This document shows positions 28,903 to 38,697 of a DNA stretch of 64,000 nt, piece by piece; position 1 is the first letter of the stretch; each line of letters starts with the position of its first letter. Made by a program: the position numbers and the translations under genes. The DNA comes from Bartonella machadoae (GTDB taxonomy: Bacteria > Pseudomonadota > Alphaproteobacteria > Rhizobiales > Rhizobiaceae): positions 1,033,095-1,097,094 of the forward strand of contig NZ_CP087114.1 of NCBI RefSeq assembly GCF_022559585.1. The letters run 5' to 3'. Below the pieces are notes generated by a model. It was given only the letters and a program-made list of their open reading frames with translations, had not been told where the DNA came from and did not search any database.

Positions 28903-31683
28903 GTGACCGATCTTACTCCACTACAAGAACGTGATGTGCTGACCGGTATTAAACCAATCAGTATTATTGATGAAATGCAACGCTCTTATCTCGATTATGC
29001 AATGAGCGTAATTGTTTCCCGTGCACTTCCTGATGTCCGTGATGGACTGAAGCCGGTTCATCGGCGTATTCTTCACGCCATGAATGAGATGGGGCTTTCT
29101 TTCAACAAACCTTATCGTAAATCTGCTGGTGTCGTTGGTGAGGTTATGGGGAAATTCCATCCTCATGGGGATGCTTCGATTTATGATGCGTTGGTGCGTA
29201 TGGCACAGGACTTTTCTTTGCGAAACCCGTTGATTGATGGACAGGGGAATTTTGGTTCTGTTGATGGTGATCCGCCTGCGGCAATGCGCTATACAGAATG
29301 TCGTTTGGAAAAAGTTTCGGAAGAACTTTTAGCGGATATTGATAAAGATACCGTTGATTTTCAGGATAATTATGATGGACGTGAGCGTGAACCTGTTGTC
29401 CTACCGGCACGTTTCCCTAATCTTTTGGTTAACGGATCAGGCGGTATTGCTGTAGGAATGGCAACCAATATTCCTCCTCATAATCTTGGTGAGGTTGTTG
29501 ATGGTTGTATCGCCTTGATTGATAATCCTAACATAACGCTTGATGAAATCATTAAAATTATCCCCGGTCCTGATTTTCCTACGGGGGGGATTATTTTGGG
29601 CCATTCTGGTATTCGTTCCGCCTATGAAACTGGACGTGGTTCAGTGATTATGCGTGCTAAGGTTGATATTGAAGAAATTCGCAATGGTCGACAAGCAATT
29701 ATTGTCAGTGAAATACCTTATCAGGTTAATAAAGCAACAATGATTGAAAAAATGGCCGAATTGGTGCGTGATAAACGTATCGAAGGAATTTCTGATTTGC
29801 GTGATGAGTCTGATCGTGATGGCTACCGCGTTGTTATTGAACTCAAGAAGGATGTTGTTGCCGAGATCGTTTTAAATCAATTATATCGTTATACGCCCCT
29901 GCAAACTTCTTTTGGTTGCAATATGGTTGCGTTAAATGGGGGAAAACCGGAACAGATGGCGTTGCTTGATATGCTTCGTGCCTTTGTTTCTTTCCGAGAA
30001 GACGTTGTTAGTCGGCGAACGAAATATCTTTTGCGTAAAGCGCGTGAACGTGCCCATGTTTTGGTCGGTCTTGCACTTGCTGTTGCTAATATCGATGAAA
30101 TTATAGCACTCATTCGCAAGGCTCCTGATCCACAAACAGCGCGTACACAATTAATGGAGCGGTGCTGGCCAGCTTTTGATGTCGCCCCTTTAATTAAACT
30201 GATTGATGATCCTCGTCATATTATCCATGATGATGGGACTTATAATTTATCTGAAGAACAGGCGCGTGCTATTTTGGAATTGCGTCTGCAAAGGTTAACG
30301 GCACTTGGGCGTGATGAAATTGCCGATGAATTGAATAAAATTGGCGTGGATATTACCGATTATCTTGATATTCTTGCGTCTCGATCACGTATTATGGGGA
30401 TTGTGAAGGATGAGCTGAGTGCCCTTCGTGAGGAGTTTGCAACACCGCGACGCACTGTCTTTGGTTTTGGTAGTGCTGAGATGGATAGCGAAGATCTGAT
30501 TGCTCCAGAAGATATGGTGGTGACGGTTAGTCATAGTGGCTATATTAAGCGTGTGCCTCTCAATACATACCGAGCGCAGCGTCGCGGGGGTAAGGGGCGT
30601 TCTGGTATGTCTACCAAGGATGAGGATTTTGTAACGCGACTGTTTGTGGCTAATACCCATACTCCGGTTCTTTTCTTTTCATCACGTGGAATTGTTTACA
30701 AGGAAAAAGTTTGGCGTTTACCACTTGGTACGCCCCAATCACGCGGGCGAGCTCTGATTAATTTACTTCCTTTACAGCAAGGTGAACGCATAACAACTAT
30801 TATGCCTTTACCAGAAGATGAAGCGCATTGGGGTACATTGGACATTATGTTTGCAACAACGCGTGGAACTGTACGTCGTAATAAATTATCAGATTTTGTT
30901 CAGGTGAATCGTAATGGCAAAATTGCCATGAAACTTGATGAAGAGGGAGATGAAATTCTTTCTGTTGAAACTTGTACAGAACATGATGATGTTGTTTTAA
31001 CAACGGCTAATGGACAATGTATTCGTTTTCCAGTTGTTGATGTTCGTGTTTTTGTCGGGCGTAATTCGGTGGGGGTCCGTGGCATTAATTTGGCAGACGG
31101 TGATAAGGTTATTTCGATGACACTCTTAGAGCATGTTGAGGCGACTTCGGTTGAACGTTCCGCTTATATCAAACGTGTGATGAATGAACGGCGTGCTGCT
31201 GGTGCCGATGCTGAAGATATTGTAACTCTTGAGGAAGAAGATGAGGGAAGCGAAACAGAGTTAACAGATGAGCGCTATGCAGAGCTTCAGGCGCGTGAGC
31301 AGATGCTTTTAACAGTGAGTGAATTTGGTTATGGAAAACGGTCTTCCTCCTATGAATTTCGCATTTCTGGACGTGGTGGAAAAGGAATTCGTGCAACAGA
31401 TCCATCTAAGACAGCTGGAATTGGTAAATTGGTAGCGGCTTTCCCAGTGAAAGCACAAGATCAAATTATGTTGGTCTCAGACGGTGGACAACTCATTCGT
31501 GTCCCTGTGGAGGGTATTCGTATAGCAGGTCGTTCAACAAAAGGGGTCACAATTTTTAATACAGCTGAGGGTGAAAAAGTCGTATCGGTTGAACGTATTT
31601 CTGAATCTGAAGATGATGATCATCAATTAGATGATGTCTCTGAAAAATATCCTGATACGGTTGATGAAAGCACAGAGAAATAA
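28903..31683 (+). CDS. gyrA: DNA gyrase subunit A
   Basis: GyrA is the breakage-reunion subunit that introduces negative supercoils with GyrB. The catalytic tyrosine is Tyr130 in [10 protein letters not shown], and the C-terminal wrapping domain has the GyrA box QRRGGKG. The start is GTG at 28903, giving [16 protein letters not shown]. The quinolone region reads [10 protein letters not shown]: Ala91 is equivalent to E. coli Ser83, and Asp95 to Asp87. An acidic insertion near residues 765-795 ([20 protein letters not shown]) is common in alphaproteobacterial GyrA. The length is 926 residues. Confidence 0.98.
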
Positions 31684-31707
31684 TTTTCAAGGGGGCGAAG
31701 TGAAACG

Positions 31708-32226
31708 ATGAAAATTGCTCTTTATGCTGGTTCTTTTGACCCTCTTACAAATGGTCATCTTGATGTTTTGCGGGGCAGTCTGGTTTTGGCTGATAAGCTT
31801 ATTGTCGCTATAGGTGTACAGGCTAAAAAAAAACCACTTTTTACTTTTGAAGAGCGTGTTGATTTAATTACTGAAGTAGGAAAAGATTTGTTAAATGTGG
31901 GGACTGATCGGTTGCAGGTGCTTTCATTTGATTCTCTTTTGATTGATAAGGCTCAAGAGATTGGTGCTTCATTTCTTATTCGTGGATTACGTGATGGTAC
32001 TGACCTTGATTATGAAATGCAAATGGCGGGGATGAATGCTATCATGGCTCCTCAATTACAAACTGTCTTTTTGCCGGCAAGCGTTTCTGGACGCGTCATT
32101 ACCTCTACATTGGTTCGTCAGGTCGCTTCTATGGGGGGGGATGTCGCGTCCTTTGTGCCTGCAAATGTTGCGAAAGCTTTACGTTTAAAATTTTTATCTG
32201 TAAAGGAAGATGATGATGTCTCTTAG
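31708..32226 (+). CDS. coaD: Phosphopantetheine adenylyltransferase
   Basis: CoaD transfers AMP from ATP to 4'-phosphopantetheine, the penultimate step of coenzyme A synthesis. The nucleotidyltransferase motif TNGH occurs in [14 protein letters not shown] (residues 8-21), and the later [19 protein letters not shown] is typical. It has 172 residues. It lies 24 bases after gyrA, with AAGGGGGCGAAG upstream of its ATG, and its end overlaps the next gene. Confidence 0.97.
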
Positions 32227-32809
32227 AATTTTTGCTCTTTTGACGTGTCTTTTTTGTTTTTTTTCCTTGAGTGCTGGTGCAGATGATTCTAACATAACCG
32301 ATGATGCAAATGTCCTCATTTTATCTCTTAAAAAGGGTGACGTGTTTATTCGTCTTCGTCCTGATTTGGCACCAAAACATGTTTTGCAAATCAAGAGATT
32401 AACAAAGGAAGGTGCATACAATAATGTTGTCTTTCACCGTGTTATTCCAGGTTTTATGGCACAGACTGGTGATGTTCAATTTGGAAAAAAAGGCAGTGCA
32501 GATTTTGATGCTAAACGTGTTGGGAGTGGTGCTTCCAATTATCCCAATATACCAGCAGAATTTTCAAAGCAGCCCTTTAAGCGTGGTACCGTTGGGATGG
32601 CACGAGCACAAGATAAAAATTCCGCAAATTCTCAATTCTTTATTTGTTTTGATGATGCTCCTTTTTTAAACGGTCAGTATACTGTCGTTGGAGAGGTTAT
32701 AAAGGGAATGGACGTTGTTGATACAATTAAAAAAGGCACCACAAGTAATAATGGATCTGTAAAAGATCCCGATGTTATTAATGCTGCCACTTTACAAGCT
32801 GATAGATGA
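32216..32809 (+). CDS. ppiA: Periplasmic cyclophilin-type peptidyl-prolyl isomerase
   Basis: The enzyme catalyses cis-trans isomerisation of prolyl bonds during folding of exported proteins. A signal peptide ([18 protein letters not shown], ending near SAGA) is followed by the cyclophilin domain with [33 protein letters not shown] and the late [12 protein letters not shown]. Three in-frame ATGs lie at 32210, 32213 and 32216; I favour the last because AAGGA is then eight bases away. The gene overlaps the coaD end and is followed by a cytoplasmic paralogue. Confidence 0.92.
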
Positions 32810-32828
32810 GTCAAAGGAGTTTAGCCGT

Positions 32829-33341
32829 ATGACTGAGATTAAAGATTTAGAAAATACCTTAATTCTTGAAACAACAAAGGGGAGAGTTGTTATTGGGCTT
32901 TTTGCTGATTTAGCGCCTAGTCACGTTGCACGTATTAAAGAGCTTGTGCGTGAAGGTGCTTATGATAATGTTGTTTTTCATCGTGTTATTGATGGTTTTA
33001 TGGCTCAAACGGGAGATGTGCAATTTGGAAAAAAGGATGGCACCGAATTTAATTTATCACGTGTCGGTATGGGGGGCTCAAAGAAGCCTAATTTGACAGC
33101 AGAGTTTTCAAATCTTTCTCATAAGCGTGGTACAGTTTCGATGGCGCGTAGCCAGAATCCAAACTCTGCTAATTCACAGTTTTTTATTTGTTTTGCAGAT
33201 GCTCCTTGGCTTGATCGTCAATATTCCATATGGGGACAAGTTATTGAAGGTATGGAAAATATCGATAAAATTAAGCGTGGTGAACCTGTTATAGAACCTG
33301 ATACAATCATTAAAGCGACAATCGCTGCCGATGCAAAATAG
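32829..33341 (+). CDS. ppiB: Cytoplasmic cyclophilin-type peptidyl-prolyl isomerase
   Basis: This is a second cyclophilin, lacking a signal peptide, so it should act on proline isomerisation in the cytoplasm. It begins MTEIKDLENTLILETTKGRV and keeps [16 protein letters not shown] and [19 protein letters not shown]. The two genes are similar along their length and probably arose by tandem duplication. I chose the ATG at 32829, with AAAGGAG upstream. An in-frame ATG at 32772 would overlap the first cyclophilin gene. The length is 170 residues. Confidence 0.94.
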   Translation: MTEIKDLENTLILETTKGRVVIGLFADLAPSHVARIKELVREGAYDNVVFHRVIDGFMAQTGDVQFGKKDGTEFNLSRVGMGGSKKPNLTAEFSNLSHKRGTVSMARSQNPNSANSQFFICFADAPWLDRQYSIWGQVIEGMENIDKIKRGEPVIEPDTIIKATIAADAK

Positions 33342-34196
33342 TATAAATTATACGTGTTTTAATTTTAAGCACGTTGAGTGAAGATATTCTGGTCTGATTG
33401 TTGTCTTCAGTGTAGTAGAGATCAGTTGTTATGTCTTGGAATCTAGAGGTTTGGAGACTAAAAGATGTGTGTGATTCTCTATGTTTTATTTGTATGAGGT
33501 TTTCTTATTTATCAGTGCTATTCGGTATACGGATGTGATCTTTGCATTTGTTTGCCATTTTAATAGTTGTATTGCTATATAACTAAAACATGAATGGCCG
33601 ATTGCATTCTCTTAACTATAGGATCTATAGCTTCTTACAGTTGTTCTCCGTTTTATGTATGTGTTTTGAATTTTATATTTTTGTATAAATGGGTTTGAAG
33701 AGGCAAAGAGCTAGGATAATTCTTTGTCTTGAGAAACCTTTAAAAGCAGATGAGAATGCTTCTGCATTTACCTCTTCTGACTTCATTGAATAAGGGTCGT
33801 TCTAGGTTTGAGTGTTATGGTTGTTCGTTGTACGTAAGAACAAGATGTTTTGTTGTTGCTTATGCTATTATAGCTTTCGATTTTTTGCTTAAATTATATT
33901 GGTTATACGAAGTAAGATCGTTGTTGTTTGAACAACGATTTTAGAACAGTGGTGTATAGAAATATAAAGGATATGTTGTTGGTCTATCAGATGTTTTGGG
34001 GAAATAAGATTATTGCTTTACTTATGATGATTGTTTGGTAACAAAATTTTATTTACTCTATTCAATTCTTTTATACTGATTACAGTATTGAGCGAATCGA
34101 AGGTCAATCCATAAAACTTATGAAGGTGCCATAAGAAAAGGTGTAACTTTTCTTTTTATGGCGATATGAATTTGTAGAATCAAAAAGATAAGAGTG
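33342..34196 (+). other. Gene-free gap where queA would be expected
   Basis: The 855-base stretch between ppiB and tgt is AT-rich and holds only short frames without recognisable motifs. Many Hyphomicrobiales carry queA, the epoxyqueuosine-pathway ribosyltransferase-isomerase, between the cyclophilins and tgt (recollection). I see no QueA motif in any frame. A hairpin lies just upstream of tgt (34129-34161). Confidence 0.6.
34129..34161 (+). promoter_or_regulatory. Hairpin just upstream of tgt
   Basis: CCATAA/TTATGG and GAAAAG/CTTTTC form two stacked 6-bp stems with a 6-base loop and a three-T bulge. The inner stem is followed by five T residues. It ends 35 bases before the tgt ATG and could act as a weak terminator or attenuator. 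It does not resemble the preQ1 riboswitch consensus that I know. Confidence 0.35.
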
Positions 34197-35315
34197 ATGA
34201 TAAAGACATTTCATTATAGAAAAATTGCTCAAGATGGATGTGCGCGTCGTGGTGAAATTATAACGAGTCGTGGGAGTGTTCGTACACCCGCATTTATGCC
34301 TGTTGGTACGGCAGGAACTGTTAAAGCCATGTATATGGATCAGATACGTGCTCTTGGTGCAGACATTATTTTGGGCAATACTTATCATTTAATGTTGCGT
34401 CCTGGAGCAGAGCGTGTTGCTCGTTTGGGAGGATTGCATGAATTTTCACGTTGGTCTGGACCCATTTTAACCGACTCTGGCGGATTTCAAGTTATGTCAT
34501 TGGCGGGAATTCGTAAAATTACCGAACAAAATGTTATTTTTCGTTCTTACATTAATGGCGCATATTATGAAATGAGTCCGGAGCGTTCTATTGAAATCCA
34601 AGGGCTTCTTAATTCTGATATTCAGATGCAGTTGGATCAATGTATTGCACTACCTGCTCGTGAAAAAGAAATAGAAGCTGCTATGGAACTTTCATTGCGG
34701 TGGGCACAGCGTTGTAAAACAGTTTTTGGGAATCAACCAGAAAAAGCATTGTTTGGTATTGTTCAGGGGGGGGATAATATGAAACTGCGTGAACGTTCTG
34801 CACAAGCGTTGAAAGAGATGGATTTGAAAGGTTATGCTATTGGGGGGCTTGCCGTTGGCGAACCACAGAGTGTGATGACAGCCGTGTTGGATGTTACTTG
34901 TCCAATTTTACCAGAGGATAAACCACGCTATCTCATGGGGGTAGGAACACCTGATGATATTTTACACAGTGTTGCTCGTGGTATTGACATGTTTGATTGT
35001 GTTCTACCGACCCGTGCGGGACGCCATGGTTTAGCTTTTACGCGTTTTGGTAGAATTAATTTGCGAAATGCGCGTTATGCAGAGGATCCCCATCCCCTTG
35101 ATCCACAGTCTCTTTGTCCCGCTGCATATGATTATAGTTGTGCTTATTTACATCATTTGATCAAATCTGGTGAGTCTCTTGGTGGTATGTTGTTGACTTG
35201 GAACAATCTCTTTTATTATCAGCAGCTTATGCAAGGAATTCGTGATGCTATTGAAGAAGGGTGCTATAGTGACTTTTGCGCTGAAACACGTGCTTTATGG
35301 AAGAAAGGACGTTAA
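34197..35315 (+). CDS. tgt: tRNA-guanine(34) transglycosylase with degenerate zinc site
   Basis: Bacterial Tgt exchanges guanine 34 of GUN-anticodon tRNAs for the queuosine precursor preQ1. The fold and active site look intact: DSGGFQVMSL, LDQC, FGIVQGG, GGLAVGEP and the nucleophile Asp267 in MFDCVLPTR. The zinc site is not. Against the usual CxCxxC...H pattern, the first Cys is Ser305, the second remains as Cys307, the third is Ala310, and the His is Asn336. I use the ATG at 34197; a GTG at 34194 is adjacent. At 372 residues there is no truncation. Confidence 0.93.
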   Translation: MIKTFHYRKIAQDGCARRGEIITSRGSVRTPAFMPVGTAGTVKAMYMDQIRALGADIILGNTYHLMLRPGAERVARLGGLHEFSRWSGPILTDSGGFQVMSLAGIRKITEQNVIFRSYINGAYYEMSPERSIEIQGLLNSDIQMQLDQCIALPAREKEIEAAMELSLRWAQRCKTVFGNQPEKALFGIVQGGDNMKLRERSAQALKEMDLKGYAIGGLAVGEPQSVMTAVLDVTCPILPEDKPRYLMGVGTPDDILHSVARGIDMFDCVLPTRAGRHGLAFTRFGRINLRNARYAEDPHPLDPQSLCPAAYDYSCAYLHHLIKSGESLGGMLLTWNNLFYYQQLMQGIRDAIEEGCYSDFCAETRALWKKGR

Positions 35316-36024
35316 AGCGTTGATTGTAATGAACAACATTTGCTTTTTTCATGTTACTTAATTCATTTTATCTTAAGAGCTTTTGCTAAAAATGAAGCCA
35401 GAAATGTCTTTTAGACATATACAATTGTAATTGATCTAAAATAAGCGTCTCGTTTGTTGGTATATGTTCTTTTTTTGACTGTAATAATCAACAGAAACTG
35501 TTACTCCGGTACGCGCTACCTGATCCGGAGAGAAACAGTTTGTTCCTGATGGTTGTTTAGATCAACAATGTTAATGAGGGGTTAGCAAATCCTTAAGGAA
35601 GTATGAAAATTGCATTTTTATAGGGTGATTTCTATTTTTTATCCTTAAACAATCAAGTTATAACAAAGGCTGTCTTCTTTAGCAGTAGGTATGAAGGTGT
35701 TTTTTTTGAATTGAAGGTTTAAAAATGCAAACATTTGATACAGTGCTAAGCTTATCTTTTCTGATCATGATATTTTCATAACGGATGTTTTATTTAAGCT
35801 ATAGAATATTGTCGATTTCATGCATCTAAAGAACAAATTTTATTTGTTAAAGTGGATATTTTGATATCTCACGACAAAAGAAAACGAAAAGCGTTTTTAT
35901 TGTAGAAGATGTTTTAATATTTTATTGGGTTTTATTGGAAATTTTTAGAAAGCAATATAAGAAGACTCTGCGTTTATTTCTACCATATTACAGATATTTA
36001 TGATTAAAGTATCACTCTATAGAA
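35316..36024 (+). other. 709-base gap between tgt and an MFS gene
   Basis: No gene of more than a few dozen codons is convincing here. The only notable structure is the strong hairpin at 35495-35541. The rest is AT-rich sequence without recognisable promoter or tRNA features. Confidence 0.55.
35495..35541. other. Strong two-part stem-loop in intergenic DNA
   Basis: AAACTGTT pairs with AACAGTTT (8 bp) and CTCCGG pairs with CCGGAG (6 bp), with small bulges between them and a 15-base loop. It is GC-richer than its surroundings, lies 180 bases beyond tgt and has no T-run. It could be a small RNA, an mRNA structure or a protein-binding site; I cannot name a family. Confidence 0.5.
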
Positions 36025-37233
36025 ATGAAAAAGATGAGGGATTCTGATAGAAAAGACATTCTTGCTTTAGGCATTGATTTGAGAACACGCTATTTGGCAA
36101 ATTTCGCTCTTGCCGTCGGGAGCTTTGCTATCGGTACTGCGGAATTTGTTGCGATGGGGTTACAGCCAGAAATGGCACGAAGTTCATCTGTTGATATTCC
36201 TACCGCTGGTCAATATATTTCTGCTTATGCATTGGGTATTGTGATTGGAGCGCCTCTTTTAGCTGTTGTGACAGCTCAGTTATCACGTAAAATTGTGCTG
36301 ATAGGACTAATGTTTTTTTATGCGCTGGCAAATATTGCCAGTGCTTTTTGTTCTGATTTTAGCGTATTAGTAGCGTTGCGGTTTATCAGTGGTTTTCCTC
36401 ATGGTATCTATTTCGGTCTTGCAACTTTGGTTGCCGCTTCGATGGTAGAAATGAAAGAACGTTCCAAAGCTGTTGGGAATGTTATGCTTGGTTTAACAAT
36501 TGCGACCGTTTTGGGAGCGCCGAGTGCAACTTGGATTGGTCAACTTGTTGGTTGGCAGATTGCTTTTGTCCTTGTTGGTGCTATTTCTTTATTATGTTGT
36601 TTGCTTGTTTGGAAATTTTTACCTTCGGGTTTGAAGATTGCAAAAACAAGTCCTCTACGTGAACTTGGTGCCTTAAAGCAAAAGCAAGTGTGGTTTCTCT
36701 TGATGATGGTTTCTGTTGGAGCTTCAGGATTATTTTCTGTTTTCACTTATATTAAGTCAACATTAATGCATATTTCTGGTGTTTCGCTTGATTTTGTGCC
36801 ATTTATTATGCCGCTAGTTGGATTTGGTATGGTGATAGGGAATCTTTTAGGACCTAAATTAGCAGTGAAAATTGGCATTTCACCATTAATATTTTTTTCG
36901 ATGCTTTGGAGTACATTTGTTTTTTTTCTTTTTTTCTTTTTATCCCATACTCCATTAACAGCTGCATTAGGATGTTTTTTTGTTGGTACTTCTTTTGCAG
37001 CTATGCCTTCTATACAAACAAAAATTATGGATATCACTCTTCATGGGCAGATTTTGGCAGGAGCATTAATGCAGTCTGCTTTTAATATTGCCAACGCTCT
37101 TGGCGCAGAATCTGGAGCATGGGTTTTGAGATTGGGCTATAGTTATGAATATACCGCTATTGCGGGGGGGATTTTAACTTTATGGGGTTTACTGATTTTT
37201 TGCTTCTCATGCTATATGGAAAAGTATGATTGA
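36025..37233 (+). CDS. MFS drug/sugar efflux-type transporter (DHA1-like)
   Basis: This 402-residue inner-membrane protein has twelve hydrophobic segments and MFS signatures of the AraJ/PbuE-like DHA1 group, including FAIGTAEFVAMGLQPEMA (residues 32-49) and the RFISGFPHGIYFG motif in the fourth to fifth segment region. Such proteins export drugs, sugars or purines by proton antiport; the substrate here is unknown. A second start ATG at 36034 is possible. It is convergent with another MFS gene 40 bases away. Confidence 0.85.
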   Translation: MKKMRDSDRKDILALGIDLRTRYLANFALAVGSFAIGTAEFVAMGLQPEMARSSSVDIPTAGQYISAYALGIVIGAPLLAVVTAQLSRKIVLIGLMFFYALANIASAFCSDFSVLVALRFISGFPHGIYFGLATLVAASMVEMKERSKAVGNVMLGLTIATVLGAPSATWIGQLVGWQIAFVLVGAISLLCCLLVWKFLPSGLKIAKTSPLRELGALKQKQVWFLLMMVSVGASGLFSVFTYIKSTLMHISGVSLDFVPFIMPLVGFGMVIGNLLGPKLAVKIGISPLIFFSMLWSTFVFFLFFFLSHTPLTAALGCFFVGTSFAAMPSIQTKIMDITLHGQILAGALMQSAFNIANALGAESGAWVLRLGYSYEYTAIAGGILTLWGLLIFCFSCYMEKYD

Positions 37234-37272
37234 CATTTTTTGCTTTTGAGAGAAAATATTGTTTCATTTAAT

Positions 37273-38697
37273 TCAGTGCTTTGATTGTCCTATGGGATTT
37301 TTTAATATGCGATAGGAAACGCGTAGAGCAAATGGAATACCAAGGCAAAATAAAAAACTGATCAGTACGGCAAGAAGAGTTTTAGCAGCTGAAATCATTC
37401 CTATTATTCCTCCCGGATTAAAGAGACCAGCGAAATTTGTGATTGTTCCTGCAAGTGTTGCACTTAACGCAGCGGAAAAGAGCTGTACAGAGGTAAGTGA
37501 TTCGCTAGCACGTAGAGCATCCTCATTGTTTGCAGATTGTAAGATCCGTGTTAACAAATGCGGCCAAGCTATGCCTGCGCTAATCCCGATAGCAAATAAT
37601 GCTAAGCAAATGATAAAAATATGTTCAGATGTAGAATCTTTCATTGGAATAAGCCATAAAAGACTGCTTATACCTAAAAGACTTAATATTGGTGAATAGA
37701 CGATGATGCTGCGAACTTTTTGGGAGGATACTCCAGCGCTTGATAAGGAACCACATGTCCAACCCAAGCTTGTGAGTGATGCTATATAACCGGCAATAAG
37801 CGGGGTTTGTCCATGAAGCTCTTGAAGAAAAAGTGGAAAGTAAAGCTCCATGCTATACACCACTGTCGTCATAACGAGTATCAAGACATAAATAGGAAAA
37901 AACTCAGAGGAGACTGAAAAGGATTTATGCGGCAACATGGGGTGAAGTGTGGATTTTTCAACTTTTGCTAGAACAAGGAAAAGGATCAATCCGATAATTA
38001 ATCCACAGATTTGCACAATTTTGGTATTTATAGCACCACAAGCAGAAATAATAAAAATTAACAAAATAAGTATGAAAAGTTGTAAGAGAGGAAGAGGGGA
38101 TGTTGGAATCTTTCTTTTATTTTCTTTTGGTAAAACTTTAAGAGCTATGAGAGAGAAAATTATTGCTAATGTGCCAATGATCCAAAAGGATGCTCTCCAT
38201 GCGCCATAATATACAGAAATGCCACCAATAGCTGGTCCTAGCAAGGTTGATATTCCCCACATCCCAGAGATAATACTCAACGCATGAGACCATAGAGATG
38301 GACTAAAGGCAAGACGCACCATAGAATAGGATAGGGATAGTAAAGAACCGCTTCCAAATCCTTGAATAAAACGCCCTAGTAAAAATAATGGCATAGTTGA
38401 AGCCATACTGCATATGAAGGTACCAACAGTAAAAATGAAACCAGAGATTAAATAAGCTTTACGAGGACCTATTTTTTCTAATATTTTTGTTGCAAGTGAA
38501 GTTCCAAGGAGTGACGCTGTAATAAAAACAGTTGCCACCCAAGAATAATACAGCTCTCCCATTTCGCTCATAAGAGAGGGTAAAATAGTAATAACAATAT
38601 AAACGTTCGTAGCATGTAATATAACACCGCCTGTAAACGTTAAAAAGCGAATACCATTTTTACCCAATAAAAGTGCAGACCAGCTTTTTTGTTCCAC
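37273..38697 (-). CDS. MFS transporter, multidrug-type
   Basis: This 474-residue inner-membrane protein has about 14 hydrophobic segments, in keeping with the DHA2-type drug:proton antiporters. The family motif region reads GRFIQGFGSGSLLSLSYSMVR near residues 107-127, and LGPAIGG follows in the fifth segment. The substrate is unknown. It is convergent with a DHA1-like gene and lies 121 bases from icd on the same strand, separated from icd by a likely terminator. Confidence 0.85.
   Translation of the reverse strand: MEQKSWSALLLGKNGIRFLTFTGGVILHATNVYIVITILPSLMSEMGELYYSWVATVFITASLLGTSLATKILEKIGPRKAYLISGFIFTVGTFICSMASTMPLFLLGRFIQGFGSGSLLSLSYSMVRLAFSPSLWSHALSIISGMWGISTLLGPAIGGISVYYGAWRASFWIIGTLAIIFSLIALKVLPKENKRKIPTSPLPLLQLFILILLIFIISACGAINTKIVQICGLIIGLILFLVLAKVEKSTLHPMLPHKSFSVSSEFFPIYVLILVMTTVVYSMELYFPLFLQELHGQTPLIAGYIASLTSLGWTCGSLSSAGVSSQKVRSIIVYSPILSLLGISSLLWLIPMKDSTSEHIFIICLALFAIGISAGIAWPHLLTRILQSANNEDALRASESLTSVQLFSAALSATLAGTITNFAGLFNPGGIIGMISAAKTLLAVLISFLFCLGIPFALRVSYRILKNPIGQSKH

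What the first reader, a model, noticed from the sequence alone, without database searches (positions are those of the whole stretch)
34197..35315. Tgt has lost three of its four zinc ligands but kept its catalytic residues
The zinc-binding C-terminal motif of bacterial Tgt (CxCxxC plus a His about 26 residues on) is replaced: Ser305 (35109-35111), Cys307 kept, Ala310 (35124-35126) and Asn336 (35202-35204). The catalytic nucleophile Asp267 and the preQ1 pocket (DSGGFQ, LDQC, IVQGG, GGLAVGEP) are intact. In studied Tgt enzymes the zinc supports folding and tRNA binding, so a zinc-free but active enzyme would be unusual. I recall published work on queuosine salvage in Bartonella henselae with a lone Tgt and transporter, but I cannot check whether the zinc loss is described.
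Basis: partly seen in the sequence, partly recalled or inferred. Interest (0 to 1): 0.7.

Follow-up and report, generated by a model that had tools for sequence, protein, structure and literature searches.

The report
Zinc-less Tgt shared by many alphaproteobacteria
A tRNA-modifying enzyme described as zinc-dependent has lost its zinc-binding residues in this bacterium, in every genome of its order examined here and in several related groups, while keeping its catalytic residues, which suggests that the zinc is dispensable.

Summary
The Bartonella Tgt at 34197-35315 has Ser305, Cys307, Ala310 and Asn336 where E. coli Tgt has C302, C304, C307 and H333; catalytic and pocket residues are intact. 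This is neither peculiar to Bartonella nor tied to its loss of queuosine synthesis. None of 167 Tgts examined from the window's order has the full site (154 keep one ligand, 6 two, 7 none). Elsewhere in the class 105 of 130 are complete; outside the class 50 of 50. On trees built without these columns the site changes at least 10 times, and one origin is rejected (p-AU 1e-5). Asp93 and Asp267 are present in 429 of 429 rows. queA sits beside tgt in 58 of 60 other family genera searched, so the loss came before the salvage lifestyle. Published genetics suggests that two such enzymes work: B. henselae Tgt (partial complementation in E. coli) and S. meliloti Tgt (mutant phenotypes). The best reading is a zinc-free Tgt inherited from an alphaproteobacterial ancestor. 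Metal content and structure are untested; no structure prediction could be obtained. Seven searches of an open-licence library found no description of the loss.

The parts
34197..35315 (+). tgt, bacterial tRNA-guanine(34) transglycosylase, zinc ligands lost
   Evidence: TIGR00430 453.9 bits; PF01702 490.2 bits; only TIGR00430 match in the genome
35109..35126 (+). former CxCxxC zinc motif, now S305-L-C307-P-A-A310
35202..35204 (+). Asn336 in place of the fourth zinc ligand (E. coli H333)
34473..34475 (+). Asp93 (Z. mobilis D102), catalytic, kept
   Evidence: 429 of 429 rows D
34995..34997 (+). Asp267 (Z. mobilis D280), catalytic nucleophile, kept
   Evidence: 429 of 429 rows D
33914..34192 (+). 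possible queA remnant immediately upstream, where relatives carry intact queA
   Evidence: QueA pieces in order along the stretch, but each at chance level (best E 0.07-0.1; the downstream control gap gave 0.056); queA next to tgt in relatives

Best explanation
This is an orthologous bacterial Tgt that works without the structural zinc. It exchanges G34 for preQ1 (and queuine poorly, as published for B. henselae) by the usual Asp nucleophile chemistry, presumably as the usual homodimer. The C-terminal subdomain keeps its length and its dimer-interface aromatic positions, but small or polar residues (S-C-A/T-N) stand at the old ligand positions, so the knuckle is presumably held by ordinary packing. 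The loss was inherited: an ancestor, possibly shared with Caulobacterales-type lineages, gave up the outer two cysteines, and the histidine went later. Shown here: the residue losses, their distribution, repeated origin, conservation of catalytic residues, single copy and purifying selection. Taken from papers: activity of the B. henselae enzyme and phenotypes of an S. meliloti tgt mutant. Inferred: absence of metal, packing as its substitute, and activity of the window's own enzyme.
For: Residues. Genus: 68 of 68 intact Tgts S-C-A/T-N. Order: 0 of 167 Tgts with CCCH, at most two ligands kept. Class outside the order: 105 of 130 CCCH. Other classes of the phylum: 50 of 50 CCCH. Trees: at least 10 changes; single clade rejected, p-AU 1.0e-5. 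Catalytic residues 429 of 429. Dimer hot-spot positions in 162 non-CCCH rows: Y317 162, H320 162, Y313 151, F83 146; spacing kept in 160 of 162. One Tgt in the own genome and in 60 of 61 family genomes, the other being one gene in two overlapping pieces. Bartonella dN/dS median 0.075, also 0.075 over residues 298-350. queA within 0.7 kb of tgt in all 58 family genomes that have it over cut-off (positions compared by eye). L042 comes from a 1,931,047-base contig, the length listed for B. henselae Houston-1 in PMC2798158, and is S-C-A-N; that strain's Tgt partially complements E. coli (PMC11570991). Six proteins named S. meliloti are S-C-T-S; the S. meliloti tgt mutant is defective in symbiosis and is not rescued by preQ1 in the HeLa assay (PMC3568095).
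Against: No metal measurement or structure: the prediction job failed and could not be repeated. B. henselae complementation was only partial, and preQ1 and Q in B. henselae tRNA were about 1000-fold below a typical E. coli sample (PMC11570991). The S. meliloti passages show no complementation of the tgt mutant itself and no Q measurement. Bartonella without queA have a higher median dN/dS (0.075, 1418 pairs) than those with queA (0.021, only 23 pairs), hinting at relaxed constraint. Two of 71 genus genomes have tgt in pieces. Three of the 66 order rows (one family, small genomes) fall outside the main zinc-less clade, and the 95-row tree separates the Caulobacterales-type rows, so one loss for the whole order is not proved. 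The candidate compensating residue Trp335 does not track the loss on independent pairs.
Confidence: 0.8

Rival explanations
1. The loss is a Bartonella-specific decay or adaptation that goes with loss of the queuosine pathway and a lone Tgt salvaging preQ1/queuine.
For: 58 of 71 Bartonella genomes have no queA over cut-off; tgt is in pieces in 2 of 71; dN/dS is higher in the queA-less species; only traces of preQ1 in B. henselae (PMC11570991). Pelagibacter, which that paper groups with Bartonella as lacking the enzymes that make Q-tRNA from preQ1-tRNA, is zinc-site deficient too in the two Pelagibacteraceae rows seen (L148, L149).
Against: All 167 order-level Tgts lack the full site, and queA is over cut-off in 58 of 60 other genera of the family. 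The 13 Bartonella with queA have the same S-C-A-N.
Confidence: 0.05
2. A metal site is rebuilt from other residues (the remaining Cys307 with His319/His320 or a newly gained ligand), so the enzyme still binds zinc.
For: Cys307 is kept in 142 of 162 non-CCCH rows and His320 in 162 of 162. His277 is present in 148 of 162 against 9 of 148 CCCH rows.
Against: His319 and His320 are common in zinc-type enzymes too (109 and 146 of 148), so they are not new ligands. His277 lies ten residues after the nucleophile in sequence; its place in the fold was not examined. Twelve rows keep none of the four ligands (7 order, 5 named). No other Cys or His passes the 40% mark only in the non-CCCH rows.
Confidence: 0.1
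3. The zinc-less Tgt is a poor enzyme or a non-catalytic tRNA binder and another enzyme makes Q.
For: Partial complementation only, and trace preQ1 (PMC11570991).
Against: Catalytic residues 429 of 429. One Tgt in 60 of 61 family genomes; the other (G462) is one gene in two overlapping pieces. The S. meliloti tgt mutant has clear phenotypes.
Confidence: 0.08

Closest known systems
Bacterial Tgt (TIGR00430; Z. mobilis 1ozm/1enu, E. coli b0406)
   Same: Length, Asp93/Asp267, preQ1 pocket GGLAVGE, dimer hot-spot aromatic positions, spacing of the C-terminal subdomain (all by sequence)
   Different: Three of the four zinc ligands replaced; relatives have lost two to four
Eukaryotic QTRT1/QTRT2
   Same: TGT family; QTRT1 keeps both catalytic Asp (PMC6165067 passage)
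   Different: Both subunits keep all zinc ligands (PMC3660597 passage); QTRT2 shows the reverse pattern, zinc kept and catalysis lost
B. henselae bTGT of Quaiyum et al. 2024 (PMC11570991)
   Different: The paper treats substrate specificity; zinc is not mentioned in its main text

Membership tests
Bacterial Tgt (TIGR00430) | Whole-protein score over the curated cut-off | tested here: met
   453.9 against 306.75 bits
Bacterial Tgt (TIGR00430) | Two catalytic aspartates (Z. mobilis D102, D280) | tested here: met
   Asp93 and Asp267; 429 of 429 rows
Bacterial Tgt (TIGR00430) | preQ1-type pocket (Asp147, Gln190, GGLAVGE) | tested here: met
   GGLAVG as the preQ1-type site in PMC11570991
Bacterial Tgt (TIGR00430) | CxCxxC...H structural zinc site, part of the zinc domain called a hallmark of TGTs in PMC6165067 | tested here: not met
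   S305, C307, A310, N336. Score, catalytic residues, position beside queA in relatives and published activity of B. henselae Tgt keep it in the family, so I take the site as typical rather than defining
Bacterial Tgt (TIGR00430) | Homodimer interface aromatic cluster (F92, W326, Y330, H333 in Z. mobilis; PMC5395182) | tested here: met
   F83, Y313, Y317, H320, by sequence only; W326 is Tyr here
Bacterial Tgt (TIGR00430) | tRNA-guanine exchange activity of the window's own enzyme | not testable with these tools
   Activity seen in print only for B. henselae Tgt in E. coli

The most novel reading that the evidence does not exclude
The structural zinc of Tgt, described as required for activity and as a family hallmark, is dispensable. 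A metal-free Tgt arose early in Alphaproteobacteria and repeatedly afterwards (at least 10 changes on the tree), first losing the outer cysteine pair and later the histidine. It is the only Tgt found in the Bartonella and family genomes searched, most of which carry queA and presumably make Q with it.
Probability: 0.75. Interest if true: 0.55.

Novelty: new variant of a known kind. Interest (0 to 1): 0.5.

Why it matters
Papers state that TGT needs zinc, that its ligands are highly conserved or that the zinc domain is a hallmark (PMC9508795, PMC4425180, PMC6165067; passages). A large natural set of zinc-less, apparently functional orthologues, with intermediates (SCSH, CCSH, CNLH), makes the role of the zinc directly testable and shows how a structural metal site can be shed while the catalytic residues stay fixed. 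It also warns against reading zinc-ligand loss in one genome as decay or as specialisation for salvage.

Tried and rejected
Trp335 as a compensating residue: 137 of 162 non-CCCH rows against 44 of 148 CCCH rows, but over 8 independent pairs it goes the same way in 2.0, the other way in 1.2 and does not differ in 4.7 on average (median p 1), so it is rejected.

A second, zinc-type Tgt covering for this one: none in the own genome; one Tgt in 60 of 61 family genomes, and in G462 one gene in two overlapping pieces.

preQ1 riboswitch near tgt or the transporter gene: no Rfam match at gathering scores in window 31000-38000 or in L377.

Single origin of all non-CCCH Tgts: rejected.

Structure model of the old zinc cage: not obtained.

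Paper searches for a description of the loss, seven in all: 0 papers; 11, 10 listed; 1; 15, 14 listed; 38, 25 listed; 0; 0. Of the listed papers I read passages of PMC6165067, PMC5395182, PMC9508795, PMC4425180, PMC13329287 and PMC3660597; those passages do not describe it. The other listed papers were seen as listings only. Only openly licensed PMC papers are held and no supplements were read, so absence from print is not shown.

Full report
What is there. The window lies in a 2.7 Mb single-contig genome whose nearest Tgts are named Bartonella. The ORF at 34197-35315 is a complete bacterial Tgt: TIGR00430 453.9 bits, 54% identical to E. coli K-12 Tgt over 352 residues, and the only TIGR00430 match in the genome. 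The catalytic aspartates and the preQ1 pocket are intact.

How far it extends. In the genus, 70 of 71 genomes have a match; 68 are over the cut-off without internal stops, two are in pieces and one (85% complete) has none. All 68 (own copy included) are S-C-(A or T)-N. In the rest of the GTDB family, 33 genomes were read (30 of the 60 others, plus 3) and none has a complete site. In other families of the order, 66 of the 138 matching genomes were read and none is complete. Together 167 Tgts of the order keep none (7), one (154) or two (6) of the four ligands. The order carries no name in these tables; I take it as Hyphomicrobiales, the NCBI order of Bartonella and its named neighbours. In the rest of the class, 130 of the 167 matching genomes were read and 105 are complete; 30 of these are the best scorers and 100 were chosen by hand from the listed rows, so this is not a random sample. 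Outside the class, 50 of the 73 matching genomes (30 best and 20 lower scorers) were read and all 50 are complete; so is E. coli. Of 80 named GTDB loci, themselves the best matches to the window's Tgt, 40 are complete. The incomplete ones include Brucella, Mesorhizobium, Rhizobium, Agrobacterium, Hoeflea, Bradyrhizobium, Methylocapsa, Xanthobacter, Phenylobacterium, Hyphomonas, two of the three rows named Erythrobacter with a listed state or its neighbours (L103, L117; L116 is complete), and two Pelagibacteraceae. Two Bradyrhizobium, a Methylocapsa, a Xanthobacteraceae and a Hyphomicrobiales MAG have none of the four ligands.

History. On a 310-row tree built without the ligand columns, 144 non-CCCH rows form one clade (support 93) of Hyphomicrobiales with Caulobacterales, Hyphomonadales and Parvularculales; three rows of the window's order (one family of small genomes) lie outside it; the state changes at least 10 times in all. 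A 95-row maximum-likelihood tree also needs 10 changes, and holding all 54 non-CCCH rows together is rejected (p-AU 1.0e-5). There the Caulobacterales-type rows form a group of 5 apart from the main group of 30, so whether those two share one loss is not settled. Among 232 non-CCCH rows none has lost the histidine while keeping both outer cysteines, and 36 keep the histidine with at least one cysteine gone, so the outer cysteines most likely went first. Counts of changes cannot by themselves separate gain from loss; loss is inferred because the outgroups are complete.

Function. Asp93, Asp147, Gln190 and Asp267 are fixed in 429 of 429 rows. The Z. mobilis dimer hot-spot positions and the subdomain spacing are kept. 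Bartonella tgt is under purifying selection: median dN/dS 0.075 over 1441 of 2278 pairs (561 saturated and 276 outside dS 0.1-1 left out). All pairs used fall within the queA-less (1418, median 0.075) or the queA-bearing group (23, median 0.021), so constraint may be somewhat relaxed where the pathway is gone. Published work, read as full Results for PMC11570991 and as passages for PMC3568095, reports that B. henselae Tgt partially complements an E. coli queDF tgt mutant with preQ1, and that an S. meliloti tgt mutant is defective in symbiosis and in a HeLa-cell assay and is not rescued by preQ1 there. L042 comes from a contig of exactly 1,931,047 bases, the length given for B. henselae Houston-1 in a table of PMC2798158 (passage), and is S-C-A-N. 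Six database proteins named S. meliloti are S-C-T-S. Zinc-less Tgts are thus very probably active; that they hold no metal is inferred.

Relation to salvage. queA is over cut-off in 58 of the 60 other genera of the family searched, and in all 58 it lies within 0.7 kb of tgt (positions compared by eye). Thirteen of 71 Bartonella have queA over cut-off, all 13 beside tgt and all 13 S-C-A-N. In the window, QueA-like pieces with stops lie in order at about 33914-34192, but each is at chance level (best E 0.07-0.1, against 0.056 in the downstream control gap), so the remnant rests on order and position alone. A QPTR-family transporter gene with an open frame of 241 codons lies elsewhere in the genome. 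So the zinc site went first and the queuosine pathway was dismantled later.

Comparison with the known. TGT is said to require zinc (PMC9508795, citing a 1995 mutagenesis study that I did not read), its ligands are called highly conserved (PMC4425180) and the zinc domain a hallmark (PMC6165067); all three seen as passages. The present enzyme is a Tgt by score, catalytic residues, pocket and gene neighbourhood of relatives but fails the zinc feature. I file it as a zinc-less variant of bacterial Tgt.

Limits. No structure model was obtained and metal content is untested. Other phyla were not surveyed. L114 carries an acidobacterial label but groups with Hyphomonas and may be a mislabelled bin.

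Noticed in passing
window 33342-34193: No ORF of 90 aa or more lies wholly within this gap between the second cyclophilin gene and tgt; its last 280 bases hold QueA-like pieces in order, each at chance level, a possible queA remnant.
   Followed up: partly
L069 (G032) and L070 (G042): tgt is in pieces in two of 71 Bartonella genomes; a third (G062, 85% complete) has no match.
   Followed up: no
Tgt residue 277 (window 35025-35027): His277 is present in 148 of 162 non-CCCH rows and 9 of 148 CCCH rows, ten residues after the nucleophile in sequence; the cause is unknown.
   Followed up: partly
window 36025-37233 (+) and 37273-38697 (-): Two MFS transporter genes directly downstream of tgt, below the cut-offs of the NCBIfam models shown.
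   Followed up: partly
window 32210-33341: Two tandem cyclophilin-type prolyl isomerase genes upstream of tgt.
   Followed up: no
L114: A contig labelled Candidatus Sulfopaludibacter (Acidobacteriota) has a Tgt that groups with Hyphomonas: a mislabelled bin or a transfer.
   Followed up: no
G462 (family search): Both tgt and queA appear split in two overlapping pieces in one otherwise complete genome, possibly sequencing errors.
   Followed up: no
L173, L160, L251 (GTDB family f4 of the window's order): Small genomes (1.3-1.4 Mb) whose incomplete-site Tgts fall outside the main zinc-less clade in both trees: a separate loss or a long-branch effect.
   Followed up: no
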